This document shows positions 1 through 61,091 of a stretch of 61,091 nt of DNA, piece by piece. The notes beneath the pieces were generated by a model. That model was not told where the DNA came from, searched no databases, and worked only from the letters and a program-made list of their open reading frames with translations. The stretch spans positions 1 through 61,091 of the forward strand of contig JAFYWC010000117.1 in assembly GCA_017546585.1 (NCBI GenBank), given 5' to 3'. The DNA comes from Bacteroidales bacterium (GTDB taxonomy: Bacteria > Bacteroidota > Bacteroidia > Bacteroidales > UBA932). Within the stretch, counting starts at the first letter, position 1. Every line of letters starts with the position of its first letter. A program made the position numbers and the translations under genes.

Positions 1-1919
1 CCTGCCGCGCAGTATTTGCCGGTGTATGCTCCGATGCCGTCAGCATCTGCATATCCGTTCTGTGCAAGCACTACATATTTTCCCTGAGGGATCTCGATCT
101 TCACGTTCTTCTTCGATCCGTTGAGAACGACAACGAGTGACTTCGCCGAGTCGATGCCCTCGAGTCCGCTGATGCGGAATGCTACGACGCAAGGGTCGTT
201 AACCTCGATGAACTGAAGTTTCTCACGCACGAGAGCGGCATCGCCGAGGCAGAAGCCCGGATGTGCGTGACGGATTGCAGCAAGGCCTGCATAGTAGTCA
301 ACGAGATCCTTGTACTGAGTCTTGTATGTCCAGTCAATCGCATTGATAGAGTCAGGTCTGTTGTAGCTGTTCTTCACGCCCTGCTTGTGGCGATAGAGCT
401 CTTCTCCATTGAAAATGAACGGAATACCCTGCGATGTATACATTGCTGTCTGAGCGAGCTTCACCATTGCGAGGCGCTCCTTCTCAGTCGCCTTTGTAGC
501 TTCCTCGAGACGGTCACGGAGACAGTGGTCATCGTGGCAGCTTGCGTAGCTTACGTGCTGGAGCGGGTTGCTTGTCCAAGCCTCGACTGTCACCTGAGGG
601 TGCTCGATACCTCCGACGATACCGAACTCCACGTTAGCCTTGTTTCCGGCAACACCGTCCATAAAGCCGGCGTTCTCACAGCCGAGAGGTCCGCGAACAG
701 CGTCACGGATGTTGTCGCTGAACGCTCCTACCTTGTCAAGCATATAATTGTTTGCCTTGAGGGCGATCTTCTCTGAAGGATAAGCCGGAGCCTGTGCTGC
801 CCAACCCTCACCGTAGATCACGACGTTCGGATCGATGGCGTGGAGACGCTCGCTGATCTCGTTCATAGTGTCGATGTCGTGGATGGCCATAAGGTCGAAG
901 CGGAAACCGTCGATGTGATACTCCTTCATCCACCACTCGAGAGACTCGATCATATACTTGCGGAACATCTCCTGCTCAGATGCAGTCTCGTTGCCGCAGC
1001 CTGAACCGTCAAAGAACGATCCGTCCTCGCGCATACGGTAGAAGTAACCAGGCATTGTGCGCTCGAAACCTGTCTTCGAAGCGTCTGTAGTGTGGTTGTA
1101 CACCACGTCGAGGATCACGCGGAAGCCTGCCTTGTGGAGAGCCTGGATCATCTGCTTGAACTCCTTGATACGGGTTACAGGGTTGTATGGATCTGTCGAG
1201 TATGATCCCTCTACAGCGTTGTAGTTGAACGGATCATAACCCCAGTTGTACTGGTTGTTCTCAAGGTGAGTCTCATCTACTGTGATGAAGTCGGTAGACG
1301 GAAGGAGCTGCACATAAGTCACTCCGATCTCCTTGAGGTGGTCGATACCTGTTGAGAGTCCGTCTGGGTTCTTTGTTCCCTCCTCAGTGAGAGCGAGGTA
1401 CTTACCCTTGTTGGTCACACCTGAAGTCTGGTGGATAGAGAAATCCCTGTGATGCATCTCGTAGACGATGATGTCCGAAGGCTTGATCTCAGGACTCTTG
1501 TCCTCTGCCCATCCTTCCGGATTTGTCTCATTCCAATCTACCACTGCGCCTCTCCAGCCGTTCACTCCGACTGCCTTCGCAGCGATGCCGGCAGTCTCCT
1601 CGAGCCACTGGCCGTTCTTCTTCACCTGGAAGGTATAGAGAGCGCCCTTGACATCCTCCCTTACAGTCGCCTTCCAGAGTCCGTCCTTTCCGAGTCGCAT
1701 ATCGACTGTCTTGAAAGGAGTCTCATCTGAAGCAGTGTTGTAAAGCTTGAGCTGAGCGTCGTCAGCATCCGGTGCCCATACTGCAAATTCTGTCTTGTTG
1801 CCCTTGTACACACACTCTTCAAGTGTTGCCGCAGGGACTGTAAGTGCGCCGTCTGAAGCGCAAGAGACCATTAAGGCCGCAGCCATTGTTCCCATCAGAA
1901 AATTCCTCATTGCTATCAT
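1..1919 (-). CDS. pulA: Type I pullulanase, GH13 lipoprotein (3' end outside window)
   Basis: Debranching enzyme that hydrolyses alpha-1,6 bonds of pullulan and branched dextrins. About 639 residues are visible; the C-terminus runs off the window. The N-terminus has a lipoprotein signal ending in MVSC. A CBM48-like domain follows (about residues 30-130), then the GH13 barrel with the pullulanase motif YNWGYDP, the nucleophile region GFRFDLMA, the acid/base region YGEGW and the third carboxylate in SCHDDH. Two in-frame starts exist, 1919 (MIAMRNF) and 1910 (MRNF); I give the longer. It is the last visible gene of the starch operon. It follows susD by 265 bp holding a repeat and an AT-rich palindrome, so it may also have its own promoter. 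The identity is secure from the motifs; whether it acts in the periplasm or on the surface is inferred. Confidence 0.93.
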   Translation of the reverse strand, partial: MIAMRNFLMGTMAAALMVSCASDGALTVPAATLEECVYKGNKTEFAVWAPDADDAQLKLYNTASDETPFKTVDMRLGKDGLWKATVREDVKGALYTFQVKKNGQWLEETAGIAAKAVGVNGWRGAVVDWNETNPEGWAEDKSPEIKPSDIIVYEMHHRDFSIHQTSGVTNKGKYLALTEEGTKNPDGLSTGIDHLKEIGVTYVQLLPSTDFITVDETHLENNQYNWGYDPFNYNAVEGSYSTDPYNPVTRIKEFKQMIQALHKAGFRVILDVVYNHTTDASKTGFERTMPGYFYRMREDGSFFDGSGCGNETASEQEMFRKYMIESLEWWMKEYHIDGFRFDLMAIHDIDTMNEISERLHAIDPNVVIYGEGWAAQAPAYPSEKIALKANNYMLDKVGAFSDNIRDAVRGPLGCENAGFMDGVAGNKANVEFGIVGGIEHPQVTVEAWTSNPLQHVSYASCHDDHCLRDRLEEATKATEKERLAMVKLAQTAMYTSQGIPFIFNGEELYRHKQGVKNSYNRPDSINAIDWTYKTQYKDLVDYYAGLAAIRHAHPGFCLGDAALVREKLQFIEVNDPCVVAFRISGLEGIDSAKSLVVVLNGSKKNVKIEIPQGKYVVLAQNGYADADGIGAYTGKYCAA

Positions 1920-1987
1920 AAATTTTTAGTCTTATTAATCGTTCCACTATGCGCATAGGCGCACATTTTACGAATATAGCCATTTTT

Positions 1988-2010
1988 CTTATATATTGAA
2001 AATATATAAG
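1988..2010. promoter_or_regulatory. AT-rich perfect palindrome upstream of pulA
   Basis: CTTATATATT and AATATATAAG form a perfect 10-bp inverted repeat around a 3-bp centre, about 70 bp upstream of the pullulanase start. The placement suits an operator or an AT-rich upstream element. The rest of the 1920-2074 gap holds no gene. TATATTCG (minus strand, 1978-1971) is a weak match to the -7 box TAnnTTTG. Function is inferred from position only. Confidence 0.4.
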
Positions 2011-2074
2011 CGGAACTGTTGGAAGAACTTGACGAACGGCCATAATTTCCGGACGAATCACCACCGACAGCGAG

Positions 2075-2182
2075 CGTGAAATGCAAAGCACTACAGCACA
2101 GCTACTTACAGAAACTGCGTGCCGCCAAAGGGGAGCACGCAGAGTCAGCAAGAAGCTGAAGATCAAAGGCTTACATTTCACG
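2075..2182 (-). repeat. 108-bp element with 9-bp terminal inverted repeats, copy 1
   Basis: The ends CGTGAAATG and CATTTCACG are perfect inverted repeats. The centre (2117-2140) has arms GCGTGC and GCACGC around a 12-bp loop. A second copy of identical length lies at 31881-31988 with roughly 80 percent identity by hand alignment, and a partial copy centres on 25117-25140. Copy 1 starts one base beyond the stop codon of the upstream SusD gene. It could be a non-autonomous mobile element or an RNA 3'-end structure. Confidence 0.75.
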
Positions 2183-2183
2183 G

Positions 2184-3812
2184 TCAATAGCCGGGATTCT
2201 GGACGAGGGCCTTGTTGGTGGCGAGTTCGGTCGGAGGGAGCGGGAAGAGGCACTTGTAGGCCGGGAAGGCGGCGCCGGCGTAGGCGCTGCCGCCCTTATA
2301 CGGCCAGAGGAGTGCCTCTGTATTGTACACTCCGAAGCGGATAAGGTCGGTGCGGCGGTGAGCCTCCCAGAGGAGCTCGCGGGCACGCTCCGCGAGGAGG
2401 AAATCAGGAGTGATTTCCGACGGAGGAGCGACCCCGGCGCGGGTGGCAAGGGCCTGCATATACGGAAGTGCCTCATCCGGAACCCCAAGGTTCATACAGA
2501 CCTCAGCGTAGATCAGATAGATTTCCGCAAGGCGGATCATCGGAAAGTCCACATTGGAGTTGCTCATAGTCGCCGACTGCGGAAGGTATGACTGATTGGT
2601 CTCATTCGAAGGTATGTTATTGAATTTCAAACAAGTCCATCCGTTCATAAAGCTGTACAGAGCATCCTCCATAGACTCGCTGCGCCCCTTTATGTAGAAG
2701 ATCTCTCCCCTTCTGTCGGAGGTCTGATACTCCCCAGTCTGATAATTCTGACCCGAGACTCCGTAGTATTTTGATACGAATTCATATGGAGTCCTCAGAC
2801 CAGCCCAGCCGTTGACCTGACCGTTTGGTCTGGACGAATCCGTAATGTCTGTCGAGGCCATCGATGCACTCAGGATATAGGTCGTACCGCCATAGGAGTT
2901 GATATAGTTGTTATCATAGTCGACAGCCCACAGGAACTCCTGACGCGCTGACGCATTCTGGCCGTTATCACCCCTGAAAAGGTTGGCGTATGAAGGACTC
3001 AGCTGATAACCCATTGCGAATATCTCCTCGCATAACGACTTAGCTTCCGAGGACATATTAACTCCTGTGTACACCTTGGCATTCAAGTACATACGCGCCA
3101 GGAGGCCGGCAGCAGAACCTCTATCTGCGCGCGGATAAAGAGAATGTGCAGAGAGCATTGGACTATCATCTGCCACCAATGACTTCAACTCCCCTACACA
3201 GAAGTCAAACACTTGCTGACGAGGGGCCTGGGAAGGGAAATATGTTCCTCCGAAAGGTGAATTCTCTGTAGTGAAAGGTACATTTCCGAAGCAGTCGAGA
3301 GCCATCCAGTATAGGTAGGCTCTGATGAATCGGGCCTCGGCACGGTATGTCTGGATTGTAGCCGCAAGATCCGCGGACACTCCGCGAGAGGCCAGTTTAT
3401 CAGGCGTGGTCTGACGAAGGTACTCGTTTACAAAGGCCACCCCCTGGAGAGTGCGGACATAGACTGCATAGATTGCGTCATTCTGGACTCCGGTCCAAGT
3501 GTTCGTGTTAAGGGCACGCACCCAGGCGTCGTTTTCCCACGAACATTTGGCCTCATCGGTCGTGATCTCCTGGACTGACCAGAAGGCGCGGATCAGCTCC
3601 GACGCTCCGCCGTCCATCGGTTGCATATCTGTCAAGTCATTTGTGACGAACTGGAAGTAAAGGCGTGTAAGGCCTGCAAGGTAAGCCTCTTCTGAGTTAC
3701 CGTAGACATATTCGGATACCGGTTCCGTCTTGTCAAGCGGAAGTGTATCCAGATTCTGCACACAGGAGGTAAGGAGTGCGGCCAAGGCCGCTATGTATAT
3801 CATTCGTTTCAT
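2184..3812 (-). CDS. SusD-like starch-binding outer-membrane lipoprotein (second pair)
   Basis: SusD/RagB-family lipoprotein of 542 residues, which caps its SusC partner and delivers oligosaccharide to the pore. The start at 3812 (MKRMIYIAALAALLTSC) gives a clean signal and lipobox; an upstream in-frame ATG at 3860 lies inside a REP repeat and is less likely. Family hallmarks are visible: RTLQGVAFVNEYLRQ and YRAEARFIRAYLYW in the TPR region, and the C-terminal RARELLWEAHRRTDLIRFG with the ending NPGY. It is clearly paralogous to the SusD at 12655-14286, sharing DGGASE(L/F)IRAFWS and much else. That points to duplication of the whole SusC/D unit. It follows its SusC by 114 bp that contain a large REP hairpin. 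Starch specificity is inferred from the locus. Confidence 0.95.
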   Translation of the reverse strand: MKRMIYIAALAALLTSCVQNLDTLPLDKTEPVSEYVYGNSEEAYLAGLTRLYFQFVTNDLTDMQPMDGGASELIRAFWSVQEITTDEAKCSWENDAWVRALNTNTWTGVQNDAIYAVYVRTLQGVAFVNEYLRQTTPDKLASRGVSADLAATIQTYRAEARFIRAYLYWMALDCFGNVPFTTENSPFGGTYFPSQAPRQQVFDFCVGELKSLVADDSPMLSAHSLYPRADRGSAAGLLARMYLNAKVYTGVNMSSEAKSLCEEIFAMGYQLSPSYANLFRGDNGQNASARQEFLWAVDYDNNYINSYGGTTYILSASMASTDITDSSRPNGQVNGWAGLRTPYEFVSKYYGVSGQNYQTGEYQTSDRRGEIFYIKGRSESMEDALYSFMNGWTCLKFNNIPSNETNQSYLPQSATMSNSNVDFPMIRLAEIYLIYAEVCMNLGVPDEALPYMQALATRAGVAPPSEITPDFLLAERARELLWEAHRRTDLIRFGVYNTEALLWPYKGGSAYAGAAFPAYKCLFPLPPTELATNKALVQNPGY

Positions 3813-3829
3813 ATTGTATTCTTGTTTAT

Positions 3830-3918
3830 GAGATTGCCACAGCCCTGAAGGGCTTCGCAATGACGTATCCGACGAGTGTACACGTCATTGCGAGGAGCGA
3901 TAGCGACGTGGCAATCTC
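3830..3918. repeat. Inverted REP pair between susC and susD
   Basis: GAGATTGCCAC (3830-3840) pairs with GTGGCAATCTC (3908-3918), and CGCAATGACGT (3856-3866) pairs with ACGTCATTGCG (3882-3892). AGCCCTGAAGGGCT (3841-3854) forms a smaller internal hairpin. This is a head-to-head pair of a dispersed REP unit, also found at 9951-9979 and in degenerate tandem form at 35103-35245. It fills most of the susC-susD spacer, so the polycistronic mRNA would carry a long hairpin there. Confidence 0.85.
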
Positions 3919-3926
3919 GATACCTT

Positions 3927-6900
3927 TTAGAATTTTACATTCAGGCGGAGGGAGCAGGTGCGGGAACGCGGCCACATAGTGTTGTCGATTCCATTCTCGG
4001 AAGTGGTTTCCGGATCCGGACCGCTGTAGCCGGTCAGTATGAAGACGTTCTGCATACTGAGCGCAAGGCGTATGGTCGAGCCCCATTTTCCTATATCCCT
4101 GAAGGTGTATCCTAAGTTCACATCATCAAGGCGGAAGAAGGAACCGTTCTCCAGGAAGTAGTCAGAATACCACTGCTGAGCGCTGTTCGGCTCTATAAAT
4201 CCGGTGGTCTTCACCAGTCTGGCCTGATTAGGAAGCGCTCCTGAATTAAGGTCCAGACTTGCTGTAGAGTTCGCCGAAGCAAAGTCATTGAATATCCACA
4301 CACCTGCCGAGCCGTGTCCGTTCAGTCCGAAGTCCCAGTTCTTGTACCCCACTTTAAGGTTGAGTCCATAGTAGAACTTCGGAGCCGGACTCTTACCCGT
4401 CATATATCGGTCTCCCTCAGTAATCTCCCCATCACCATCCAGATCCTCAAACTGATTCTGGAGCGGCTTTCCGTCCGCATCATACTTCTGTTTATAGGTA
4501 TAGTATGTATATGGGGCATAACCGACCATCTGACGTGAGAGATATCCGCCTGTTCCTTTGGATATGGTACCAGTCTCTATGTAGTAGTTATCATCTTCAG
4601 TCACATTGAGTTTCGTAAAGACTGTCTCCTGGAATGTGCCATTGAAGCCGACCTGGACGCTCCACAGACCGGTCTGCACCGGGATTCCGCTGACAGAGAA
4701 CTCCAGACCCTTGTTACGGATCGAACCGATGTTCGTCATCAGTTTATTTCCGAAATTCGAGCCCATAGGCACCTGGACGGAATTGAGCAGATCCTTCGTG
4801 TCGCGCAGGTATGCGTCTATGCTACCGCTCAACCTGTCATTGAAGAATCCATAGTCGAGGCCCACGTTATATGTAGTCGTAGTTTCCCACTTGATCATAG
4901 GGTCATACGCCTGCGGCGTGAGCATATTCATAAAATTCTCATCACCCATATTATACATATAAGACGGGTTGTTCGACATATTGTATCGTGCCATATAGAC
5001 ATAGTCTCCGATACCGTCCTGCTGACCGGTCTGGCCGATAGAAAACCTGAGTTTCAATGCAGAAACCGCCTTGACATCCTTGAGGAAAGGCTCGTGAGCA
5101 ATGTTCCACGCAAAGGCTCCAGATGGGAAAAATCCCCATCTATGAGCCGCAGCAAACTTGCTGGAGCCGTCTCCACGGGCTGTGAATGTGAAGACATATC
5201 TGGAATCAATCGAGTAGTTCACACGTCCGTAGAAGGACACCAGAAAGTTCTCATTCCTATACATCAGATACCTCGAATCGACAGTCTCACCCGGATTCAG
5301 GTTCGGCTTATGAGTTACATTGAAATAATTTATGCTTCGGTTTGCCGCGTAATTGTTCTGCCAAGAATAACCGGCCACTGCATCCACGCTGTTGATTCCC
5401 CAGGAATCCTTGAATGCCGCATAGGCCTCAAAAGTCTGGCTGCGGCTGAGATTATAGCCACGATTATATCTGCCGACACCAAGATTGGCGGTGTCGGTAT
5501 AGGCCTGGAATGAACCAGGAACCACTCCGTTATATGAATCTGTGACGGTGATGTCCAATCCGGCGCTGACGTTAAAGCTCAGGTCTTCGAAGCCATTAAC
5601 CTTATAATATACAGCCGCACGGCCTATGAAACGCAGAGATTCCGCATCACTCAAATTATCATAAAGCATCGAGAGAGGGCTCGGCCCCACGAGCACATTA
5701 GGCGCGAAGAGGTTACCTTTGCCGTTACCATAGTTCCAATATCCGTTTGTGGTCGAATAGTCGATCGTGCCGTCTGAATTTACCCAATACGGATACTGAG
5801 TCGGATTGAAGAATGCCGCAGTCTGCACTGTGCCTCCGTCGGAATAGTCCTGGTACGAGTACACTCCCTTGGCATTGAGGTCGAGGCGAAGATGCTTGTC
5901 GAAGAAATCCGGAGAGAGGGTGACATCCACCGTTCCCCTATCATATCGAGCTTCCTTCAGAGTACCCTGCTGGCCCAGGTATGCAACTGACGCCCTGTAC
6001 GGCATCCTGTTGCGGAAGTTTCCCGACACACTTACACTCTGATCAGTCACAAAAGCCGGACGAAAGATCAGGTCCTGCCAATCTGTGAGCGCATTTCCCA
6101 TCAGTTCTTGTATCCTATCCCCTGTCGGAGTTCCTGCAGGATAGATCTGCGAATAAAAATCCACAAGCTCTGACGGCGACATCACCGGCACCTTGCCGGA
6201 AATATGCTGAAGGCTCGCCGAACCGGAATAGGTAACTTTCGGCTTACCTCCATATCCTTTCTTTGTCGTGATTATGATTACGCCGTTAGACGCTCGCGAA
6301 CCATAGATTGCCGAGGCCGAAGCATCCTTCAAGACTGTAAATGATTCGATATCATCGGGATTGAGCAGGTCCAACGGATTTGACATAGCCCCACCCGCAC
6401 CTTGTGCTATCGGGACACCATCTATGACGACAAGAGGGTCATTCGAGGCATTCAAGGACGCTGATCCCCTGATTCGGATTCGGGAGCCAGAGCCTGGTCC
6501 TCCATCGCCCGGGGTAACGAGCAAGCCCGGAATCTTACCTTTAATCATATCCTGAGTATTCACGACCGCACCACGATTCAAGTCGTCCGACTTGATGGCA
6601 GAGACCGAACCGGTCACGTCATCCTTCTTCACAGTTCCGTATCCAATGACAACTACCTCGTCTATAAATTCGGAGTCTTCCTTAAGGGTGACTGTTGCAG
6701 GCACTTGGGAAGCCTTGAAGATCTGAGGCGCATAGCCGATACAACTGACCTCCACCGATGATTCTGGGCTGGCTACCTTCAAGGTAAACTCACCATCCAA
6801 GCCGGTCGTCGTGCCGTTCTGTGTCCCCAGTTCCACCACCGTCGCTCCTACAACCGGTCCATACTGGTCATTGACTGTCGCACTGACCCCGTATCCGCCC

Positions 6901-6971: not shown

Positions 6972-7052
6972 ATAAGTCCGTTTATAATTATTCAAAATTA
7001 TCTCACGGACTCTCCCATTCAATCCTCAGACCAAAGGGAGGATGGACAATGA

Positions 7053-9923
7053 TTATTTAGTGAGGAGGCGGAACTCTCCCTGCTTGAGGGTGATCGAGCC
7101 AGAGGCTGTACCTCCGTTGATCTCGTCAGTCCAGGTACCCGACGGAAGGGTATATGACTGGGTTGTCTTCGAGAAGTTTCCTACCACGTGGAAAGTGTTG
7201 CCGTCCACCGAGCAGGTGATCTTCTTGATCTCGCCTGTAGGAGTCCACTCGAACTTTGCATCCTTGTCGAAGTAGCGAGGATTCTCCTTGCGGAACTTCA
7301 GGAGGGCAGCATAAGTGTCGTAAAGAGCCTTACGTGCAGGAACTGCGAGATACTCGTCTGTCACTACCGGCTTCTCACCTGTACGGCCGTTATGCTCGAT
7401 TGTATAATCGTAACCGATCTCACCGAACTGCCAGATCATCTTAGGACCAGGAACTGTGAGGAAGAATGCTGCAGAAGCACCTGCACGACGCATTGCAACT
7501 GTAAGAGCATCCTCTGCAGGACCACTGCCACCGCCTACTGAAGGGTCTGCAGGACGCTGGCCTGAATTCATAACCCATACTGTCTCTGCATCAACACTGA
7601 AATAGAAGTCGTATGTGCCTGCGTTTGCGATATACATATCCTTTGAGCCGTTGCCGTTTGTCATCTTGTAGCCCTGGCCGATTGTAAGCTTGTAGTTGTC
7701 TGAAGAAGCACCGTAGTTGAATGCATCATTCCACTCGCCTGCCTTACGGATCTTGAAGCGGTCGTTAGCCTTCACCGAAACATTCTTCACTGAGAAGAAC
7801 ACACCGTCCTTTGACATAATCTTGTCGTTGTTCCAGTCGTCACCGAGACCGATCACACCCCAGGTAACCGAAGACGCATCAGCACCTGCGCCGTAGCAGA
7901 GACGCTCCTCGTCGTGGCTCTCCATATATCCCACATAACCTCCGAAAGGCTTTGTAGAATACATATTGCCGAAGTTTCCGGTACCTCCGCTCACAGCAGA
8001 ACGGTACTCGTGGTTCACGTTTCTCCAAAGCTGCATTCCGTGGTTTGCGAGGACTTCCTCCTCATCCCAGTCGGAGAGGTGCTCGAAGATTACCACAGCA
8101 TTGTCGTTCACTGACCAGATGTGATCCGCATATCCCTTGAGGATATCTACACGAGACTGGTCATAACGTCCCCAGGCTCCGACATCAGGATCTGTCATAT
8201 TCTGAGTGAATCCCTTTGTAAGGTCGAAACGGAATCCGTCCACATCATACTCAGTAAGGAGATACTCAAGGCTGCGCTTCACGTGCTCCTTCACCATCGC
8301 ATTCTCGTGGTTCATATCGTGATATACATTGTACGGATGGGTCGGATACTCGTTGAACCAAGGGTTGTTTGACGCAGTTCTGTCTCCTGCCCACCAGAGC
8401 TTTGCCCAAGGGTGTGAACCTGTAGCGTGGTTATACACAACGTCAACGATCACTGCAAGGCCACGTCTGTGGCACTCGTCGATGAACTCCTTGTATTGTT
8501 CGCGTGTACCATAATACTTGTCGAGAGCAAACCAGTGGTTAGGGTTGTAACCCCAGCTGAGGTTGCCGTCGAACTCCTGGATAGGCATAAGCTGAACCGC
8601 TGTCACACCGAGGTTCTCGATGTAGTCAAGCTCAGCCATAGCGCCTGCGATGTTCTGACTCTTTGTGAAGTCGCGGAAAAGCATCTCATAGATCACGAGG
8701 TCGTTCTTGTCCTCGACCTTGAAGTCAGAGTGCTTCCAGTTGTATGCTGGCCTGTTGATCTGGAATGCAGAAACAAGCTGCTTCGCTCCCTCCGGGAACG
8801 CAGGTACACCCTGGATATACTGGTCGTTCCACTCGTCATATACGATCTCTGTATAAGGATCACTTGCATAGATGTCACTGCCGGAACCAGTTCCAAGACG
8901 GTACTGGAAACGATACTCCTTGTCCGCATCGAAACCGTCGAGGGTGATCCACCACTTGCCTGTTGTAGGATCATAGTACATAGATCCCTCAGGTACTCTT
9001 GTCCAGTTGTTCCAGTCACCTACGATGAAGCAGTAGTTGTGGCGCTGTCCTGCTGTGTCCATATCGTGGAAGACGAATGTCACCGAACCGTCAGCATTGT
9101 AGTTGATGCCGTCCTTTGCTCCCTCAGGAAGTCTCTTTGTCTGGATCGCACCCGGATCGAACACCTCCGCCTGATACTTGTCATCCTGTACCGAGCAGAA
9201 CTGGTCGCTGTCGTGGCTCTTTGTATTTCCGTCGCCTGTTCTTACGATGAGGGCAATCTTGGTGAGAGGAGTCTCACCGCTGCCGAAATACTCACGGATT
9301 GAAGGCTCCATCTTGAACTCCCAGTGGTTGTCTGCAACCTTCTTGAAGTGAGTCTTCTCCTCTGTTGTGCCCCAGTCTGTAGGAACGAACTTCCACTCGC
9401 CGTCAACCACTACTCCGAAATGGCCGTAAAGCTCACCTGAATAGTTGTAGAGGGCATTGTCGGAAGCAGGCTTGAATACGATTGTACAAGGCTTGTCCGC
9501 ATTAGGATATGCAGGATCCACAGTGATTCCCGAAGCAGGATCCGGAGCAACGGCATCTGCCGGAGGAGTAACGATCTCCTCTGCACTGCCGGCCGCCTGT
9601 CTTACAGTAACCTCGATCGACTGACCGGAGCTGCTGAATGTGATCTTGCCTGAACGCTCCTGCGGAGAGTTTGCTGTCACATTGACCTCCACATTGCCGG
9701 AAGTCTTGCCGATGGTCTTGGATGTAGAAAGCCAAGAAGTTGCGGATGCTTCCACCTTAAGAACCCAGGTGGTACCCTCGCCTACAGTCACTGAAACAGT
9801 CTGTGAACCGGCGTCACCGCTGAACTCCAACGCAGTCGGAGTCACTGCGAACTGTCTAAGTTCCTTGTTACATCCCACGGCGATAAGAGCCATGGTCATA
9901 ATTGCAAAAAGAATTCTTTTCAT
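7053..9923 (-). CDS. Surface alpha-amylase lipoprotein, BACON-CBM-GH13 with inserted binding module (SusG-like)
   Basis: Lipoprotein (lipobox ALIAVGC, Cys18) that hydrolyses alpha-1,4 bonds of starch, filling the role of SusG. Domains in order: BACON (about 25-110, ending EVTVRQAAGS), a linker, an Ig/CBM-like domain (about 125-270), a second CBM48-like domain (NYCFIVGDWNNW, about 290-390), then the GH13 barrel from about 405. Catalytic residues are the Asp of GFRFDLTKG (about 561), the Glu of VIFEHLSDW (about 611) and the Asp of ESHDEER (about 670). Residues 684-800 interrupt the end of the barrel and resemble the SusE/F binding repeats encoded next door (WGVIG...WNN, KFRIRK-like core, DFYFSVDAETVWVMNSG). 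The only CATG seen in the window lies in its signal peptide codons. The family is certain; surface display is inferred. Confidence 0.93.
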   Translation of the reverse strand: MKRILFAIMTMALIAVGCNKELRQFAVTPTALEFSGDAGSQTVSVTVGEGTTWVLKVEASATSWLSTSKTIGKTSGNVEVNVTANSPQERSGKITFSSSGQSIEVTVRQAAGSAEEIVTPPADAVAPDPASGITVDPAYPNADKPCTIVFKPASDNALYNYSGELYGHFGVVVDGEWKFVPTDWGTTEEKTHFKKVADNHWEFKMEPSIREYFGSGETPLTKIALIVRTGDGNTKSHDSDQFCSVQDDKYQAEVFDPGAIQTKRLPEGAKDGINYNADGSVTFVFHDMDTAGQRHNYCFIVGDWNNWTRVPEGSMYYDPTTGKWWITLDGFDADKEYRFQYRLGTGSGSDIYASDPYTEIVYDEWNDQYIQGVPAFPEGAKQLVSAFQINRPAYNWKHSDFKVEDKNDLVIYEMLFRDFTKSQNIAGAMAELDYIENLGVTAVQLMPIQEFDGNLSWGYNPNHWFALDKYYGTREQYKEFIDECHRRGLAVIVDVVYNHATGSHPWAKLWWAGDRTASNNPWFNEYPTHPYNVYHDMNHENAMVKEHVKRSLEYLLTEYDVDGFRFDLTKGFTQNMTDPDVGAWGRYDQSRVDILKGYADHIWSVNDNAVVIFEHLSDWDEEEVLANHGMQLWRNVNHEYRSAVSGGTGNFGNMYSTKPFGGYVGYMESHDEERLCYGAGADASSVTWGVIGLGDDWNNDKIMSKDGVFFSVKNVSVKANDRFKIRKAGEWNDAFNYGASSDNYKLTIGQGYKMTNGNGSKDMYIANAGTYDFYFSVDAETVWVMNSGQRPADPSVGGGSGPAEDALTVAMRRAGASAAFFLTVPGPKMIWQFGEIGYDYTIEHNGRTGEKPVVTDEYLAVPARKALYDTYAALLKFRKENPRYFDKDAKFEWTPTGEIKKITCSVDGNTFHVVGNFSKTTQSYTLPSGTWTDEINGGTASGSITLKQGEFRLLTK

Positions 9924-9950
9924 TATATACTATATTCAATATTATTCATA

Positions 9951-10047
9951 AGATTGCCACGCTTCGCTCGCAATGACGTTGTGGCAGACGTCAAGCCCGA
10001 CTTGATCGGGCATCTTAGAAACCGGCGGTCCGGTCAGGGGCCGCCGG
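9951..10047. repeat. REP unit plus two more hairpins in the operon gap
   Basis: Three structures fill the 145-bp gap between the SusE/F-like gene and the amylase gene. The first is a single REP unit from AGATTGCCAC to GCAATGACGT (9951-9979). The second is GCCCGA/TCGGGC with a 5-bp loop (9995-10011). The third is CCGGCGG/CCGCCGG with a 12-bp loop (10022-10047). They could block 3'-to-5' decay or attenuate read-through, letting the binding protein and enzyme be made at different levels. Confidence 0.75.
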
Positions 10048-10068
10048 CTTATATAAAGACAAATCAGA

Positions 10069-12633: not shown

Positions 12634-12654
12634 ATTCTTTGAACTGTTTTATGA

Positions 12655-14286: not shown

Positions 14287-14289
14287 ATT

Positions 14290-48291: not shown

Positions 48292-48320
48292 ACATACGGC
48301 CTACGGCCGTGTGTTTTTTT
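48292..48320 (+). terminator. Intrinsic terminator of the GH53 gene
   Basis: ACATACGGCC pairs with GGCCGTGTGT around a TAC loop and is followed by a run of T. The T run at its end overlaps the -33 box of the next promoter. Confidence 0.8.
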
Positions 48321-48348
48321 GTTTTCTGCGATGTTTTGATTATTTTTG
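48318..48348 (+). promoter_or_regulatory. Consensus promoter of the lipoprotein/subtilase operon
   Basis: TTTG (48318-48321) and TATTTTTG (48341-48348) are separated by exactly 19 bp, a perfect Bacteroidota -33/-7 arrangement. The start codon of the first subtilase is 23 bp downstream of the -7 box (48371). It is the only promoter I can see for the 11.8-kb operon. Confidence 0.75.
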
Positions 48349-48370
48349 CGGATTGTTATCTATTTTGACG

Positions 48371-50859: not shown

Positions 50860-50874
50860 AACAAACTCTACATT

Positions 50875-53112: not shown

Positions 53113-53129
53113 TAAAACAACTATAGAAA

Positions 53130-55043: not shown

Positions 55044-55047
55044 TACA

Positions 55048-55713: not shown

Positions 55714-55732
55714 AAGCACACATTGACAGACA

Positions 55733-57637
55733 ATGGTTAGATTAACTAAATTTTTTGCTTTGGCTCTCGCTGCCGCAGTCGGTTTCATCGCCTGCGAAAA
55801 GCCTGTCGTGCCAGACCAGCCGGATGAGCCGACAGACAAGACCGTGACACTCGAGATCTTCGAGAATCTGGTCAATGCCGGCGGCAACGGCGGAGAGTAC
55901 AGCTTCACCTATACTCTCGTAAACGGTGAGGCAGAAGACCTTGAGGCAAAGTGTTCAGACAGTTGGGTACACGACTTCGACCTTTCTGAGGAGGGAGTCG
56001 TAAAGTTCACAGTCGACAACAACCCGACAGAAAGTTCAAGAATCACTCAGGTGACCCTCAAGCACGGAAAGGTTTCCGACAAGATCGTGATTTCGCAGAG
56101 CGGAATCGCACCGGAGCCAGTCGAAGCTACATTTGATTTCTCATTCGAGATCAACGGACCTTACGTGAGAATGTTCGTGACACCTGATCCTGAGAGCGTA
56201 AGATATTATGCCTGGTACTTCTCGAAGAAGACTCTCGAGGAGTCTCTTGCAATGTCTCCGGGAGTGGACGAAGTGATGTATCTCAACAAGATTGTAGAGG
56301 TTGATATCTCTGAGGCTATCTACTATGGAGCATACGCAGGCTACTCTGCAGAGCAGGCTGTGGCAGAGATCACTCTTGTGGGCACTACATATCAGGACTT
56401 TGAACTCAATGCCGAGACAGAGTACTACGCATTCGCTTGTGCAGTAAGCAACAGCGGCGAGAGACTCGGCAACGTATCGATCACTGAGTTCAAGACAGGT
56501 CCGGTTGAGCCTTCAGACAACGTTCTTACCATCACTGCAGACGATGTAAACACTGATCGAATCACATACAGCATCCATACAACAAATATGGACCAGTATG
56601 CGGCAATCGTTCTCCCGGCTGCTGATGTAGAGGGCAAGAGCGACAAGGAGATCGAGGCTATGTACAACAGCTTCAGCAACTATATCGGCTACCTCCACTT
56701 CGGAAACTACACCGGTACAGTTCTCGTAAGCGAGGAAAATGCTGATTACTACATCCTTGCATTCGGTTTCGAGTATGGTATGCTCACAACTGCAGTGGAG
56801 AAGATGAAGGTTCACACCCTCACTTCAGATCCTGACGCAGTTCCTGAGTTCAACGTGACCATCGACAAGGTTACAAACTACAGAATCAAGGGTTCTATCG
56901 ACGTGAATCCTCGCACAAGCCTCTACTATGTAGACTGGTGTTATGCCGGCGACAGCGCCGAGGGTCTCAAGAAGATGATCCGCGAGGCTGCACAGTGGTA
57001 TGTGGACAGCGGCTACTACGGAAGCCTTGCAGCTTGTATGAAGGTCATCGGTACCAAGGGCAGCAAGCCGTTCGAGTACACAGGTCTCACTCCTGAGGAA
57101 GGCTACCAGATCTTCGCAGTCGGCATCGACGAGAAGACAGGAGAGTTCAACACTGAGGTATATTTCTCAGAGGTGATCAATACTCCTGCGAAGAAGGTAT
57201 CCGAGTCATACATCGAGATCAATGTGGACAAGTACTTCGACGGATTCGACCTCGCATCAGCATACCCCAACGATTTCAGCGACGCTGACGGCTGGGCTAT
57301 CGTACCTCTCGAGGTGAAGATTCACGGCGACGTAGTGGACTACTACTATGACATCTATGTAGGAGATGTCGCAGCGGATCCGGAGGCTACTGACAATGCT
57401 CTCATACTTGATCTTGTACAGTACGGCAACCATAACACTGCACTCACTATGTCTTACTGCTACTTCTACGAGGACCTTACACTCGTATACTTCTCGAAGG
57501 ATACAGATGACAACTACAGTGAGGTAAAGAAGGTGAAGATCAATCTCGATCCTGCAAAGTGTGCTCCTGTAACGGAGTTCACCTATGGATCTTCAACAGC
57601 AGCGATGGCTAAGAGCCCACGAAAACTGACTGAATAA
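55733..57637 (+). CDS. BACON-containing Fn3-like lipoprotein
   Basis: Lipoprotein of 634 residues (AAVGFIAC). A BACON-like domain (about 35-120, FENLVNAGGNGGEYSFTYTL...SDKIVISQSG) is followed by several Fn3-like repeats with helical inserts, ending in motifs such as LNAETEYYAFACAVSNSGERLG and TPEEGYQIFAVGIDEKTGEF. They resemble the repeats of the lipoprotein at 53130. No catalytic motif is visible. The stop overlaps the next ATG (TAATG), coupling it to subtilase B. This duplicates the pattern of a multi-domain lipoprotein adjacent to a subtilase. Confidence 0.83.
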   Translation: MVRLTKFFALALAAAVGFIACEKPVVPDQPDEPTDKTVTLEIFENLVNAGGNGGEYSFTYTLVNGEAEDLEAKCSDSWVHDFDLSEEGVVKFTVDNNPTESSRITQVTLKHGKVSDKIVISQSGIAPEPVEATFDFSFEINGPYVRMFVTPDPESVRYYAWYFSKKTLEESLAMSPGVDEVMYLNKIVEVDISEAIYYGAYAGYSAEQAVAEITLVGTTYQDFELNAETEYYAFACAVSNSGERLGNVSITEFKTGPVEPSDNVLTITADDVNTDRITYSIHTTNMDQYAAIVLPAADVEGKSDKEIEAMYNSFSNYIGYLHFGNYTGTVLVSEENADYYILAFGFEYGMLTTAVEKMKVHTLTSDPDAVPEFNVTIDKVTNYRIKGSIDVNPRTSLYYVDWCYAGDSAEGLKKMIREAAQWYVDSGYYGSLAACMKVIGTKGSKPFEYTGLTPEEGYQIFAVGIDEKTGEFNTEVYFSEVINTPAKKVSESYIEINVDKYFDGFDLASAYPNDFSDADGWAIVPLEVKIHGDVVDYYYDIYVGDVAADPEATDNALILDLVQYGNHNTALTMSYCYFYEDLTLVYFSKDTDDNYSEVKKVKINLDPAKCAPVTEFTYGSSTAAMAKSPRKLTE

Positions 57638-59649
57638 TGAAAAGATACAGCATTTTGATGGCCACTCTTATGGTGGCTGCGGTTTCCTGCGTTTCAGAGG
57701 CGGACTTCACTGCCTCTGAAACTGCAGAGACAGCAGGAGAGAAGGCGCTTATGACAAAGCTCACCGGCAACACGAACGGTGAGTATATGGAAGGCAACCT
57801 TCTCCTGTTCCTCAATGAAGAGACAACTGCAAGAATCGAGAACGGTGAGACCGCAGCGGTGGTGGCGGAGATGTTCGAGGGTCTTGAGGTGGCGGATTTC
57901 CAGCCGGCTCTTCTAAGTTCCCCTAAGAACGTGGAACTCGCAAGAGAACTCGGTCTTCACAGATGGTTCTCCGTGTCGTTCGACAAAAGAATGCCGCTGC
58001 GAAGCTTTGCGGAAGCAGTGGCTGTGAGGCCGGAGATCACTGCCGTACAGTACAATGCTATGCCTAAGCTCGCATCGGACTTGAGGAGCATTCCTTTCAA
58101 GCCTGCGGCTCAGATGAGCAGTGCTGCAAAGACTCAGGCGATTCCGTTCAACGACCCTATGAATGAGTATCAGTGGAACCTCCTCAACACCGGAGACAAG
58201 GCTGTCGCTTCGACTGCCCGTGAAGGTGGAGACGTAGGAGTCGCTGATGCCTGGAGCCTTACAGCAGGTACACCTGACGTGATCGTGGCTGTGATCGACG
58301 CTCCTGTCAAGTACACTCACCCTGACCTTGCAGACGCAATGTGGGTGAACGAGGCAGAGAAGAACGGAACCAAGGGAATCGATGATGACGGAAACGGCTT
58401 CATCGACGACATCCACGGATACAACTTCTATACAGACGGCTATTCATACGGCGCTATCAACTGGGAGGTCCAGGGTGAATCAGGCCACGGCACTCACGTT
58501 GCCGGCATCGTTGCTGCAGTCAACGGAAACGGCATCGGAGTGAGCTCTATCGCAGGAGGTACCGGCAATGGTGACGGCGTTCGCCTTATGGCCTGCCAGG
58601 TATTCGAAGGCGGATATGCCGGCGGAGACCGCGAGATGGCCAATGCATTGACCTATGCTGCCGACAACGGAGCCTGCATCGCTCAGTGTTCATACGGCTA
58701 CAGCGCAAGCGTGTTCTCAAGCGACAACCAGTACATCAACGCTGCACCGCTCGAGTACAGAGCCTTGAAGTACTTCGTGAATCCGTCAAACTGCAACCAC
58801 CCGTCATTGAACGAGAATGTGGCGATCTTTGCTGCCGGCAATGAGGCTGCATCGAATTCAGACTACCCTGGCGCTCTTCCTATCTGCGTTTCAGTAACTG
58901 CATTCGGACCAGACTTCCTTCCTGCAGGATACACCAACTACGGACGTGGCTGCAACATCGCAGCTCCGGGCGGAGACTATTGGATCGGTGCCGCAAAGGA
59001 AGATGACAACAGAAGTATGATCCTCTCCACCTGCATCAGCGAGGTGGACAGCGACTATACCTGGATGCAGGGATCGTCGATGGCCTGCCCTCACGTTTCA
59101 GGCGTGGCAGCCCTCGGCGTATCATATGCAGGAAAGATCGGCAGAAAGTTCGGCGAGGGTGAATTCGTAAGCCTTCTCCTCACTTCTGTAAACGATATGA
59201 ACGCATTCCTTCAGGACGGTCTCAAGCCTTACGGCGACACTACCATCGGCCTCTCGACATACAACAAGCGTATGGGTACAGGCGCGATCGACGCGTGGAA
59301 GCTTCTTATGCAGATCGAGGGTACGCCTTCGATTATGGTTCAGAGCGGCACAAGCTGCAGCGTGGACATCAGCGAGTATTTCGGTGAGTCTGCAGCAGAC
59401 CTTACTTATCTTGAGGTGACTTACGATGACGCTGCCAAGAAGGCTCTCGGACTCGCATCAAAGCCTAAGGTGAAGAAGGGTATCCTTGAGATCAACTGCA
59501 TCAACAACGGTTCCGCTAAAATCAGAGTGTCTGCCATCGCAGGTGGCGGCCAGCTCGGAGGCGGAAACAATATCGGAGGTACAGAGATCTCACGTGAGAT
59601 TTCCATCGTTTCAAGAGGTGTTCACTCAAGCAATGGAGGATGGCTCTAG
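57637..59649 (+). CDS. Subtilisin-like serine protease lipoprotein (S8), copy B
   Basis: S8 protease of 670 residues, lipidated at Cys18 (MVAAVSC), paralogous to copy A along its full length. The pro-domain (about 50-150) includes LLLFLNEETTARIENG and HRWFSVSFDKRMPLRSFAEAV. The triad is Asp in VIVAVIDAPVKYTHPDL (about 220), His in GHGTHVAGIVA (about 283) and Ser in GSSMACPHVSGVAAL (about 479). The glycine after the catalytic Asp is again missing (DAP). The C-terminal domain ends SSNGGWL, as in copy A. The ATG overlaps the previous stop. A REP unit separates it from the small lipoprotein that follows. Confidence 0.94.
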   Translation: MKRYSILMATLMVAAVSCVSEADFTASETAETAGEKALMTKLTGNTNGEYMEGNLLLFLNEETTARIENGETAAVVAEMFEGLEVADFQPALLSSPKNVELARELGLHRWFSVSFDKRMPLRSFAEAVAVRPEITAVQYNAMPKLASDLRSIPFKPAAQMSSAAKTQAIPFNDPMNEYQWNLLNTGDKAVASTAREGGDVGVADAWSLTAGTPDVIVAVIDAPVKYTHPDLADAMWVNEAEKNGTKGIDDDGNGFIDDIHGYNFYTDGYSYGAINWEVQGESGHGTHVAGIVAAVNGNGIGVSSIAGGTGNGDGVRLMACQVFEGGYAGGDREMANALTYAADNGACIAQCSYGYSASVFSSDNQYINAAPLEYRALKYFVNPSNCNHPSLNENVAIFAAGNEAASNSDYPGALPICVSVTAFGPDFLPAGYTNYGRGCNIAAPGGDYWIGAAKEDDNRSMILSTCISEVDSDYTWMQGSSMACPHVSGVAALGVSYAGKIGRKFGEGEFVSLLLTSVNDMNAFLQDGLKPYGDTTIGLSTYNKRMGTGAIDAWKLLMQIEGTPSIMVQSGTSCSVDISEYFGESAADLTYLEVTYDDAAKKALGLASKPKVKKGILEINCINNGSAKIRVSAIAGGGQLGGGNNIGGTEISREISIVSRGVHSSNGGWL

Positions 59650-59652
59650 CCA

Positions 59653-59679
59653 GTCATCCTGAGCGAAGTCGAAGGATCT
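59653..59679. repeat. REP unit inside the lipoprotein operon
   Basis: GTCATCCTGAGCGAAGTCGA followed by AGGATCT, an imperfect palindrome, fills most of the 42-bp gap between subtilase B and the small lipoprotein. The unit at 32700-32726 is the same family in reverse orientation. The equivalent gap in module A has no REP and overlaps by one base. Confidence 0.8.
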
Positions 59680-59691
59680 AAAAACACAGAA

Positions 59692-60135
59692 ATGAAAAAA
59701 TTACTGTTTATTTTGGCAGCATTGATGCTGATCGCCACCGCCTGCAAGAAGGAGGACAAGAAGGTCGACTACAAGAAAAGCATTGTTGGCGAATGGCATT
59801 GTACTCCTGCAGAGATCGATGCGGATGTATATGTCTCTTTTGCTGAGGACGGAAGCTTCGACCTTTTCCAGAAGATCGGAGAAGGACGTCACAGACACTA
59901 CACAGGAGACTGGGCCATCGAGGGCAAGACTCTTTCAGGACACTATGCCGACGGAACCGATTGGGGAAGTGCATATACAATGGACTTCAGCACAGAGGGA
60001 ACTATGGTTCTCACTGCGCTCAACGGCTCTGAAGAGGTTATGGTCTATGTGAAGGAGGAGATTCCGTCTGACATCAAGAATGGTGCAGTCGAAGTGAAGT
60101 CCGCTTACACAGAGGACATCAGACCGATTCTCTAG
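59692..60135 (+). CDS. Small lipoprotein, lipocalin-like, copy B
   Basis: Lipoprotein of 147 residues (MLIATAC). Its mature domain matches the copy at 50440-50859: GEWHCTPAEIDADVYVSFAEDGSFDLFQKIGEGRHRHYTGDW and SGHYADGTDWGSAYTMDF align directly with copy A. The basic/acidic stretch after the cysteine (KKEDKKVDYKKS) may be an outer-membrane export signal. It closes the eight-gene operon and overlaps the convergent queH gene by 4 bp. As in copy A it follows a subtilase, which supports a functional partnership. Exact function is unknown. Confidence 0.87.
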   Translation: MKKLLFILAALMLIATACKKEDKKVDYKKSIVGEWHCTPAEIDADVYVSFAEDGSFDLFQKIGEGRHRHYTGDWAIEGKTLSGHYADGTDWGSAYTMDFSTEGTMVLTALNGSEEVMVYVKEEIPSDIKNGAVEVKSAYTEDIRPIL

Positions 60136-60731
60136 TCTTTACGGATACTGAATTCGCAGCCGCAGTACAGCTGGTTGTAGAAATCGTATTCCTTTATAAT
60201 CTGAAGACGGCGCTCCTGGAGCCCGTTCTTTCGCCAGTTCTGATCCCACCAGATGATGCTACGCTCTTCTGGTGGGATTTTATTTACTGCCCAGGTGCCG
60301 GCCTCGTTTATCTGGTCGAGCGATTTCCAACGTGATGATGCGAGAGTTGTGGTGATGACCCTGATGCCTCTTTCGCGGGCATACTGTGCCGTGCGCAGGA
60401 GACGCAGCTTGAAGCATTTCAGGCAGCGGCCGCCGCGCTCTGGCTCTGACTCCAATCCTGTCATCTCCTTGAGCCAGTTGTCGTGGTCATAGTCTGCGTC
60501 GATGATCTCCAGTCCGAGCGACTCGGCGTAACGCGTACACTCGTTCTTTCGGATATCGTATTCTTCCTGAGGATAGATGTTCGGATTGCAGTAATAGATG
60601 ACGGGAGTGATGCCGTTCTGCATCATCGCCTCGATGATGGCGCTTGAGCAGGGGGCGCAGCAAGTGTGGAGAAGAACTGTAGTCTCCCCCATCGGTGCCT
60701 GGATCTGCGGCTTATGCCTGTTGGTCTTCAT
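60132..60731 (-). CDS. queH: Epoxyqueuosine reductase QueH
   Basis: Iron-sulfur enzyme of 199 residues for the last step of queuosine synthesis in tRNA, reducing epoxyqueuosine. Conserved features are LHTCCAPCSS (paired Cys near residue 24), YYCNPNIYPQEEYDIRKNE, GGRCLKCFKLRL, TTTLASSRWKSLDQIN and the C-terminal YCGCEFS. These cysteines fit the cluster and metal sites of QueH. The length is normal. A -7 box TATATTTG lies 8 bp upstream on the minus strand. The stop lies in CTAG, shared with the convergent lipoprotein gene. Confidence 0.95.
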   Translation of the reverse strand: MKTNRHKPQIQAPMGETTVLLHTCCAPCSSAIIEAMMQNGITPVIYYCNPNIYPQEEYDIRKNECTRYAESLGLEIIDADYDHDNWLKEMTGLESEPERGGRCLKCFKLRLLRTAQYARERGIRVITTTLASSRWKSLDQINEAGTWAVNKIPPEERSIIWWDQNWRKNGLQERRLQIIKEYDFYNQLYCGCEFSIRKD

Positions 60732-60738
60732 AACGCTG

Positions 60739-60767
60739 CAAATATACTCCTATTTTAAGTATCTTTG
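60739..60767. promoter_or_regulatory. Back-to-back -7 boxes for queH and the nhaC fragment
   Basis: TATATTTG on the minus strand (60746-60739) and TATCTTTG on the plus strand (60760-60767), 13 bp apart, the same spacing as at 33393-33421. The plus box lies 22 bp before the ATG at 60789, so the truncated nhaC reading frame has a plausible promoter. Confidence 0.6.
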
Positions 60768-60788
60768 CACCCGCTTGACAAATTTAAT

Positions 60789-61091
60789 ATGGAGAACAAT
60801 TCTAAAAGAAACATCGCCGGACTCGTATCCCTCGCGAATCTCTGCACAGCAAACAACACCATCGCGATCATCACCACAGGACAGATCGCACGTGACATCT
60901 CAGAGAAGTTCGGAATCAATCCGCGCAAGAGTGCCAGCATCCTGGACACGTTCTCCTGCCTCATCCAGGGCCTCATCCCTTACGGAGCACAGCTCCTTAT
61001 GGCTGCCGGCCTGGCCGGAGTATCCTCGATCTCCATCGTCGGATATCTCTACTATCCTTTCGTGATGGGATTCTGTGCGATCCTCGCCATC
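60789..61091 (+). CDS. NhaC-family Na+/H+ antiporter, C-terminal segment only (open at window end)
   Basis: At least 101 residues, continuing past the window. NSKRNIAGLVSLANLCTANNTIAIITTGQIARDISEKFGINPRKSASILDTFSCLIQGLIPYGAQLLMAAGLAG matches the C-terminal quarter of NhaC antiporters, which are usually about 440 residues. Here the reading frame opens with MENNSKRN directly before this segment. The upstream DNA is a promoter and then queH on the other strand, with no trace of the preceding 300 or so residues. It may be a remnant after deletion or a stand-alone short protein. Transport function is unlikely without the rest. Confidence 0.8.
   Translation, partial: MENNSKRNIAGLVSLANLCTANNTIAIITTGQIARDISEKFGINPRKSASILDTFSCLIQGLIPYGAQLLMAAGLAGVSSISIVGYLYYPFVMGFCAILAI

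What the first reader, a model, noticed from the sequence alone, without database searches (positions are those of the whole stretch)
1..61091. Near-total absence of the tetranucleotide CATG across the whole window
Reading every line I found one CATG, at 9891-9894, against about 240 expected from 61,088 positions at equal base frequencies. Other 4-bp palindromes such as GATC, GTAC, TGCA and TCGA occur freely. The avoidance reaches into codon choice: Met codons are preceded by T-ending codons (TTT ATG, CTT ATG, GAT ATG, TAT ATG) although C-ending synonyms are otherwise preferred. Housekeeping genes, both glycan loci and the repeats all show it, so it is probably genome-wide and old. A long-resident CATG-specific restriction system or methylation-linked selection would explain it.
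Basis: partly seen in the sequence, partly recalled or inferred. Interest (0 to 1): 0.85.

Follow-up and report, generated by a model that had tools for sequence, protein, structure and literature searches.

The report
Gut bacterium genome purged of CATG
The DNA of this uncultured gut bacterium has been almost wholly cleared of the four-letter word CATG, most likely because a DNA-cutting defence enzyme that targets CATG punished every copy; this is a very strong case of a known effect, and the enzyme itself was not found in this genome assembly.

Summary
Confirmed: the window holds 1 CATG against 252 (Markov) or 238 (composition) expected, the most depleted of all 256 tetramers. All three codon frames are purged by synonymous choice, so the site itself is selected against. 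In 75 stretches of the genome not chosen for CATG (window included), 140 of 155 2-kb bins have none; imports keep it. Only 32 of 250 genomes drawn from the genus, this one included, show it by a CCATGG proxy. A phage in the same bin avoids CATG while most relatives do not. The only two of the 250 with an NlaIII-family endonuclease are both avoiders; its partner methyltransferase family occurs in other phyla beside four kinds of candidate nuclease, often in CATG-poor DNA. Best reading: restriction-site avoidance driven by a CATG-specific type II R-M system, gained and lost among species. Against closure: no CATG methyltransferase was found in this bin, and 29 of the 32 lack the identified one. 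The phenomenon is known (PMC4687349); its strength and the exchangeable nucleases are the interesting parts.

The parts
1..61091 (.). CATG-depleted DNA: 1 CATG where about 250 are expected, coding and non-coding, both strands (palindrome)
   Evidence: counts for all 256 tetramers; three codon frames
9891..9894 (.). the only CATG of the window (inside CCATGG)
   Evidence: one search lists G000:C65:9890-9895
7053..9923 (-). alpha-amylase-family gene (PF00128) with BACON domain; its codons 10-11 (ACC ATG, Thr-Met, near the start of the protein) hold the single CATG

Best explanation
The window lies in the core genome of an uncultured gut Bacteroidales species in which CATG has been counter-selected for a long time by a CATG-specific type II restriction-modification system, of the NlaIII kind or a functional equivalent. 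Mechanism: any CATG that escapes methylation, for example after replication or when the methyltransferase is diluted or lost, is cut, so cells that replace CATG by a synonymous neighbour win, until almost none is left. Shown: the depletion, its independence of codon frame, a sharp limit at an import inside a core contig, its on/off distribution among congeners, and CATG avoidance in a co-binned phage lineage. Inferred: that cleavage is the selective agent, and that the system was active in this lineage until within about 2% neutral divergence. Not shown: the enzyme in this genome; it is missing from the bin, unrecognised, or recently lost.
For: 1 CATG vs 252 expected. All three codon frames purged: 243T:1C before ATG, 69 CAC:0 CAT before G, 0 of 131 xCA before TG; 40 kb of two non-avoiding congeners show no such bias (84C:39T; 32 CAC:27 CAT; 24 of 69). 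140 of 155 2-kb bins of 75 stretches not chosen for CATG (window included) have 0 CATG; 16 stretches from CCATGG-bearing contigs, the phage contig included, hold 561 CATG in 231 kb, and three of five such contigs tested carry conjugation proteins (TraG, TraM, a coupling protein). CCATGG/GGTACC is two-moded in 250 genomes of the genus, 32 below 0.5, median 1.83; direct CATG counts in samples agree for most: G071 1/72, G031 1/77, G153 3/78 and 0/25, G156 0/23 and 1/42, against G016 80/77 and G065 77/78. PF05315 (ICEA/NlaIII family) is in 2 of 250, both avoiders (hypergeometric p 0.016); the adjacent methyltransferase M2 at 60% identity or more is in 4 of 250, 3 of them avoiders (p 0.007); the fourth, G127, has M2 with no nuclease recognised beside it and does not avoid CATG. 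Among 80 named M2 loci (three are the congeners G193, G161, G127) 67 had 5 kb or more of context: Markov CATG ratio median 0.40 with a candidate nuclease (46) vs 0.69 without (21), one-sided p 0.009, control GTAC 0.81 vs 0.85, p 0.40; CATG is the lowest palindrome in 21 of 67, more often than any other (by composition 0.31 vs 0.45, p 0.005). Phage contig C158 has CATG 3/36, nine 98-99% relatives 0.08-0.21, and 15 of 17 relatives at 54-74% identity 0.64-1.52. Known effect: PMC4687349 and PMC6286503.
Against: No CATG methyltransferase in the G000 bin (95.57% complete): no D12 MTase; the one PF01555 hit lies on the phage contig; no M2; no ICEA; the 53 [VAY]PPY-type and 23 [DN]PPF-type pattern places gave, among frames of 110 aa or more, only PrmC, an RsmD-type and one other MTS-domain methyltransferase, the phage MTase and one type I HsdM; the one C5 MTase sits in a CATG-containing import. 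29 of the 32 proxy avoiders have no M2 match, including the strict avoider G071 (95% complete). Two proxy avoiders do not hold up in the stretch sampled (G212 21/30, G122 48/57). Locus L128 has zero CATG (0/77) with M2 but no recognised nuclease beside it. Near-zero values in M2 loci are not special to CATG: below 0.15 by Markov are CATG 11 of 66, GGCC 13 of 56, CTAG 12 of 59, GATC 8 of 67. The phage-host link rests on co-binning only, and the nine close phage contigs are not independent.
Confidence: 0.8

Rival explanations
1. Trace of a lost system (a variant of the best explanation): the CATG R-M system shaped the genome but was lost before this genome was sampled, and CATG is only beginning to return through imports and mutation.
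For: No cognate enzyme found in the bin. Congeners show all grades: G030 15/78 and 10/78, G107 11/77 and 14/78, G018 21/76, G179 26/77 could be decay after loss. Such traces are documented in PMC4687349.
Against: The window has 793 neutral one-step routes to CATG (568 synonymous, 225 outside ORFs of 200 aa or more), about 264 new sites per unit of neutral divergence; one site seen limits the time since loss to about 1.8% divergence at 95% (simple equal-rates model). At least seven strictly CATG-poor genomes (G000, G031, G035, G071, G153, G156, and G261 on 3.3 kb only) show no M2 in their bins, and recent loss in every one is unlikely.
Confidence: 0.25
2. An unrecognised CATG-directed system: most avoiders in this genus use a nuclease and modification that do not look like D12, N6_N4, C5 or NPPY/NPPF enzymes, for example a new methyltransferase class or a non-methyl DNA modification.
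For: 29 of 32 proxy avoiders lack M2; G000 was searched for [DNH]PPY and [DN]PPF motifs, PF02086, PF01555, PF00145 and PF05315 without a candidate.
Against: Bins lose R-M genes: in G130 the M2 gene is split between two contig ends. Ordinary R-M systems come and go here: a DpnII system in G031 inside CATG-bearing DNA, a C5 system in G000. PPW and rarer motifs were not searched, nor PF02384 or PF07669.
Confidence: 0.15
3. Mutational loss, for example deamination of a methylated C in CATG, rather than selection on the site.
For: TATG and CATA are over-represented (1.53 and 1.39), as C-to-T change would give.
Against: GATG and AATG are also over-represented (1.35, 1.42). Where a silent escape runs through the T or A of CATG, sites are equally gone: 0 CAT among 69 His codons before G, 0 xCA among 131 before TG.
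Confidence: 0.02
4. Chance, composition or assembly artefact.
For: None found.
Against: 1 against about 250 with ordinary counts for TGCA, TCGA and GATC; the same in other stretches and in other genomes of the genus.
Confidence: 0.005

Closest known systems
Restriction-site (palindrome) avoidance by orthodox type II R-M systems (Rusinov et al. 2015, PMC4687349; abstract and passages seen)
   Same: A 4-bp palindrome is under-represented in the host core; closely related genomes differ; avoidance can outlive the system; sites of types I, IIG, IIM, III and IV are mostly not avoided.
   Different: Near-total elimination (ratio 0.004) in this window; the causal enzyme was not found in this genome's bin.
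NlaIII of Neisseria lactamica and IceA1/HpyIM of Helicobacter pylori (CATG R-M; passages of PMC13340068 seen; the 2002 IceA1 paper it cites was not held)
   Same: In congeners G193 and G130 a PF05315 endonuclease lies beside D12-type M2, the same gene pairing; 5 of 12 phage records with an M2 relative name it 'ulcer associated adenine specific DNA ...'.
   Different: A second, permuted methyltransferase (M1) precedes the nuclease; elsewhere in the M2 family the nuclease is replaced by unrelated-looking proteins (types B, C, D). None of it was found in the window's own genome.
Phage anti-restriction by site loss (Rusinov et al. 2018, PMC6286503; abstract seen)
   Same: The phage lineage of contig C158 is CATG-poor while 15 of 17 relatives at 54-74% identity are not.
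   Different: Host assignment here rests only on co-binning.

Membership tests
Restriction-site avoidance caused by an orthodox type II R-M system | short palindromic word under-represented against a Markov expectation | tested here: met
   ratio 0.004
Restriction-site avoidance caused by an orthodox type II R-M system | the depletion is specific, not shared by most palindromes | tested here: met
   of 16 palindromes only CATG and CTAG fall below 0.7; CTAG is depleted in three sampled non-avoiding congeners too
Restriction-site avoidance caused by an orthodox type II R-M system | selection on the site in every reading frame | tested here: met
Restriction-site avoidance caused by an orthodox type II R-M system | cognate R-M genes in this genome or in close relatives | tested here: inconclusive
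   relatives: NlaIII-like genes in G193 and G130, M1-type B-M2 in G161; own bin: none found, bin 95.57% complete
Restriction-site avoidance caused by an orthodox type II R-M system | imported DNA not yet purged | tested here: met
   G000:C73 has 12 CATG in its first 3.2 kb, over a C5 R-M pair, then none to 20 kb; conjugative contigs CATG-rich
Restriction-site avoidance caused by an orthodox type II R-M system | CATG methylated, and unmethylated CATG cleaved, in the living cell | not testable with these tools
   needs native reads or cells
NlaIII/ICEA R-M system (in congeners, not in the window's genome) | PF05315 endonuclease | tested here: met
   G193 5.4e-117, G130 3.4e-114; no match in G000
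NlaIII/ICEA R-M system (in congeners, not in the window's genome) | adjacent D12-class adenine methyltransferase | tested here: met
   M2: PF02086 2.6e-50, PADLOC MTase_II 6.7e-133
NlaIII/ICEA R-M system (in congeners, not in the window's genome) | CATG specificity of both enzymes | not testable with these tools
   only indirect: CATG-poor flanks in many loci
PD-(D/E)XK nuclease fold (type D partner of M2) | E...D...DxK catalytic residues and matching fold | tested here: inconclusive

The most novel reading that the evidence does not exclude
Most CATG-avoiding species of this genus, including the window's own, carry a CATG-directed restriction system whose modification enzyme belongs to no recognised DNA methyltransferase class. 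In parallel, a single conserved CATG methyltransferase lineage (M2) is served across phyla by at least four unrelated-looking, exchangeable nucleases, two of them (types C and D) with no Pfam match over its cut-off (two members of each tested) and no PADLOC match (one member of each tested).
Probability: 0.15. Interest if true: 0.7.

Novelty: new member of a known kind. Interest (0 to 1): 0.42.

Why it matters
It shows a gut-bacterial core genome rewritten at the codon level by what is most likely a defence enzyme, with the trait differing among species of one genus. That gives a large set of natural replicates for timing gain and loss of restriction systems. CATG density also becomes a direct marker of recently imported DNA in this genome, and a phage in the same bin carries the mirror image. 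The M2 family points to nuclease partners that the defence library searched here does not list.

Tried and rejected
Candidate enzymes in G000 rejected: the phage-contig PF01555 MTase (the phage lineage is itself CATG- and GATC-poor and the gene lies on a phage); the C5 MTase plus REase of C73 (in a CATG-containing import, so too recent); HsdM of C37 (type I). In G071 the PF01555-type frame lies in CATG-rich DNA (16 CATG in 9 kb) and has an SPPY motif. In G031 the D12/PF01555 pair flanks a DpnII endonuclease, PF04556 4.9e-106, so it is a GATC-type system by family. PF01555 (80 of 250 genomes) and PF00145 (66 of 250) do not follow avoidance by eye; no test was run.

tblastn of 557 kb of G000 stretches, the window and 23 stretches of other CATG-poor genomes with M1, M2, nuclease types A-D and flank genes of L128 found no R-M remnant; the only R-M-type hit was M1 against the phage MTase (35.6% over 73 residues). 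Restriction without modification was considered and disfavoured: CATG-containing imported DNA lies on the same contig as CATG-free core DNA (C73) and would be cut. Type D gave no Foldseek match at E <= 0.001 and only weak VIA-align matches, several to PD-(D/E)XK enzymes; type C (pLDDT 80) gave nothing useful. M2 and the ICEA protein have no relative among PDB sequences at the limits used. Listings of paper searches searches showed no title reporting CATG avoidance in Bacteroidales; I opened passages of PMC4687349, PMC13340068 and PMC11834463 and the abstracts of PMC4687349 and PMC6286503, nothing else, and most subscription papers are not held. The genus name Cryptobacteroides was used as a search word from recall; no call named the genus.

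They show that near-zero palindromes in M2 loci are not special to CATG (told under evidence against), which weakens that line; the within-genus, codon and phage evidence carries the claim, and I left the odds as they were.
Full report
What was checked. The window has one CATG, at 9891-9894, against 252.3 expected from a second-order Markov model and 238.0 from base composition. It is the most depleted of all 256 tetramers; the next is CTAG (7 against 73.6). TGCA, TCGA, GATC and GTAC are common.

Selection on the site. CATG can lie across codons in three ways, each avoidable by a silent change. All three are purged: before ATG there are 243 T-ending and 1 C-ending codons (elsewhere 4209 and 6791); His before G is CAC 69 times and CAT never (elsewhere 111 and 66); xCA before TG occurs 0 of 131 times (elsewhere 1424 of 4456). 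Nineteen other core stretches of the same genome behave the same (0 C of 481, 0 CAT of 155, 1 xCA of 176). Forty kb from non-avoiding congeners G016 and G065 do not (84 C to 39 T; 27 CAT to 32 CAC; 24 of 69) (genes are ORFs of 200 aa or more picked by length, not curated). A mutational cause acting on C alone would not clear the frames where the escape runs through A or T.

Extent in the genome. The window is contig 65 of an assembly of 2,494,267 bases in 163 contigs. In 75 stretches not chosen for CATG (368 kb, window included, a few overlapping), 140 of 155 two-kb bins have none; 16 stretches from CCATGG-bearing contigs, the phage contig included, have 561 CATG in 231 kb. Ten proteins from five CATG-rich contigs were scanned: three contigs carry conjugation proteins (TraG on C22, TraM on C128, a coupling protein on C36), two (C10, C39) showed none. 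Contig C73 begins with a type II C5 R-M pair carrying CATG and is CATG-free from 3.2 kb to 20 kb, so an import on a core contig keeps CATG.

Variation among relatives. CCATGG against its reversed control GGTACC in 250 genomes drawn from the genus, the window's own included, is two-moded: 32 below 0.5, 20 between 0.5 and 1, 198 at 1 or more, median 1.83. Direct CATG counts in sampled stretches (observed/composition) mostly agree. Strict: G071 1/72, G031 1/77, G035 3/76, G153 3/78 and 0/25, G156 0/23 and 1/42, and on short stretches G261 0/12, G217 0/11, G064 1/20. Graded: G022 6/77, G214 5/53, G067 8/78 and 8/77, G108 9/77, G144 10/78, G203 10/78, G030 15/78 and 10/78, G107 11/77 and 14/78, G079 16/76, G020 7/27, G018 21/76 and 15/46, G183 26/78, G179 26/77, G089 30/66. 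Not borne out in the stretch sampled: G212 21/30, G122 48/57. Above the proxy limit: G001 7/26. Non-avoiders: G016 80/77, G065 77/78, G097 48/77. The trait therefore differs strongly within the genus and is not simply old.

Enzymes in relatives. PF05315, the ICEA/NlaIII endonuclease family, occurs in 2 of 250 genomes, G193 and G130, both avoiders; it was found in none of 14 control genomes. Beside it lie M1, a permuted PF01555-type MTase with an HPPY motif, and M2, a D12 MTase. H. pylori iceA1-hpyIM is described as an NlaIII-like system (PMC13340068, passages). M2 at 60% identity or more occurs in 4 of 250: G193, G130, G161 (avoiders) and G127 (not an avoider; M2 without a recognised nuclease beside it); eleven further genomes, none of them a proxy avoider, have only distant D12 matches. 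In G161 the ICEA gene is replaced by a protein with weak, below-cut-off EVE and NucS-like matches (type B); G193 keeps a fragment of type B next to ICEA.

The M2 family at large. Four kinds of candidate nuclease lie beside M2: A (ICEA), B, C (286-303 aa, D...DQK) and D (about 195-229 aa when whole, D...D[HL]K). The members of types C and D that I tested had no Pfam match over its cut-off and no PADLOC match. In the 67 loci with at least 5 kb of context the Markov CATG ratio has median 0.40 with a candidate nuclease (46) and 0.69 without (21), one-sided Mann-Whitney p 0.009, while GTAC does not differ (p 0.40) (by composition 0.31 and 0.45, p 0.005). CATG is the lowest palindrome in 21 of 67 loci, before CTAG (16) and GGCC (13). 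Strong cases: L127 0/70, L129 0/38, L181 0/69, L132 1/71, L147 1/42, L185 2/70, L140 2/66. Against a simple rule: L128 0/77 with no recognised nuclease; L160 and L150 with type A pieces at 0.75-0.77, where the type A frames are short or weak; and values below 0.15 are as frequent for GGCC (13 of 56) and CTAG (12 of 59) as for CATG (11 of 66). The tie of M2 to CATG therefore rests as much on the named H. pylori pairing as on these counts.

Phage. Contig C158 of the bin encodes a DnaB-like helicase, primase and DNA polymerase of phage families. It has 3 CATG where 36 are expected. Nine IMG/VR contigs 98-99% identical in the primase (one over 96 residues only) have 0.08-0.21; of 17 more distant ones (54-74%), 15 lie at 0.64-1.52, with L307 (0.21) and L312 (0.38) as exceptions. 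This fits phages that face CATG restriction, with the caveat that the host link is co-binning.

The gap. In G000 no CATG MTase was found: no D12, no M2, no ICEA, PF01555 only on the phage contig, a C5 MTase only in a CATG-containing import. Of 53 places fitting [DNH]PPY and 23 fitting [DN]PPF, all lay in stretches I held (three and two of them in stretches fetched earlier); frames of 110 aa or more gave PrmC, an RsmD-type and another MTS-domain methyltransferase, the phage MTase and a type I HsdM. For G031, 11 of 13 [DN]PPF places were held, for G071 all 19. If the system had been lost, new CATG would arise at about 264 per unit of neutral divergence in the window, so one site bounds the time since loss at about 1.8% (equal-rates model). 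Either the system is missing from the bin, as nearly happened in G130 where M2 is cut by contig ends, or it is unrecognised, or it was lost very recently.

What is known. Rusinov and colleagues report that orthodox type II systems, and hardly other types, cause avoidance, that it grows with residence time and can outlive the system (PMC4687349, abstract and passages), and that phages show it too (PMC6286503, abstract). This case is a strong member of that kind. The additions are the near-complete purge, the two-moded distribution over one genus, the phage mirror, and the exchange of nucleases around one MTase lineage.

Verdict. Observation confirmed. Interpretation partly supported: restriction-driven avoidance at about 0.8 confidence, with the enzyme in this genome unidentified.

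Noticed in passing
window 1-61091; sampled congeners L223-L225: CTAG is also strongly depleted (7 against 73.6 Markov in the window) and is depleted in the three sampled non-avoiding congeners too (0.04, 0.21, 0.00), so it looks like a genus-wide trait.
   Followed up: partly
L116, L117 (G067), L210 (G261): GATC is almost absent from some congeners (G067 3/78 and 6/77; G261 ratio 0.08 on 3.3 kb) but free in others: possibly a second switching palindrome avoidance in the genus.
   Followed up: no
L111 1286-3477 (G000:C73): C5 methyltransferase plus REase_II pair in a short CATG-containing stretch at the start of an otherwise CATG-free core contig: a recently acquired, different type II R-M system.
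   Followed up: partly
L002 3586-8779 (G000:C158): In the phage, the DNA polymerase gene is in two parts with a methyltransferase gene and an HNH-like gene between them; the broken end reads to me like an intein start.
   Followed up: no
L128 8891-11020 and L127: M2 lies near the same permease-like gene in both genomes; L127 has the M1-ICEA-M2 set, L128 M2 alone, yet both flanks are CATG-free.
   Followed up: partly
L181 9156-10013, L185 9106-10002, L149 4515-5132 and relatives: Two candidate nuclease families (types C and D) beside the M2 methyltransferase with no PADLOC match in the members tested; type D has invariant E, D, D and K residues of PD-(D/E)XK type.
   Followed up: partly
window 9951-9978, minus strand: A short intergenic sequence (cgtcattgcgagcgaagcgtggcaatct) upstream of the amylase gene, of a kind I recall as a common intergenic repeat; copies were not counted.
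   Followed up: no
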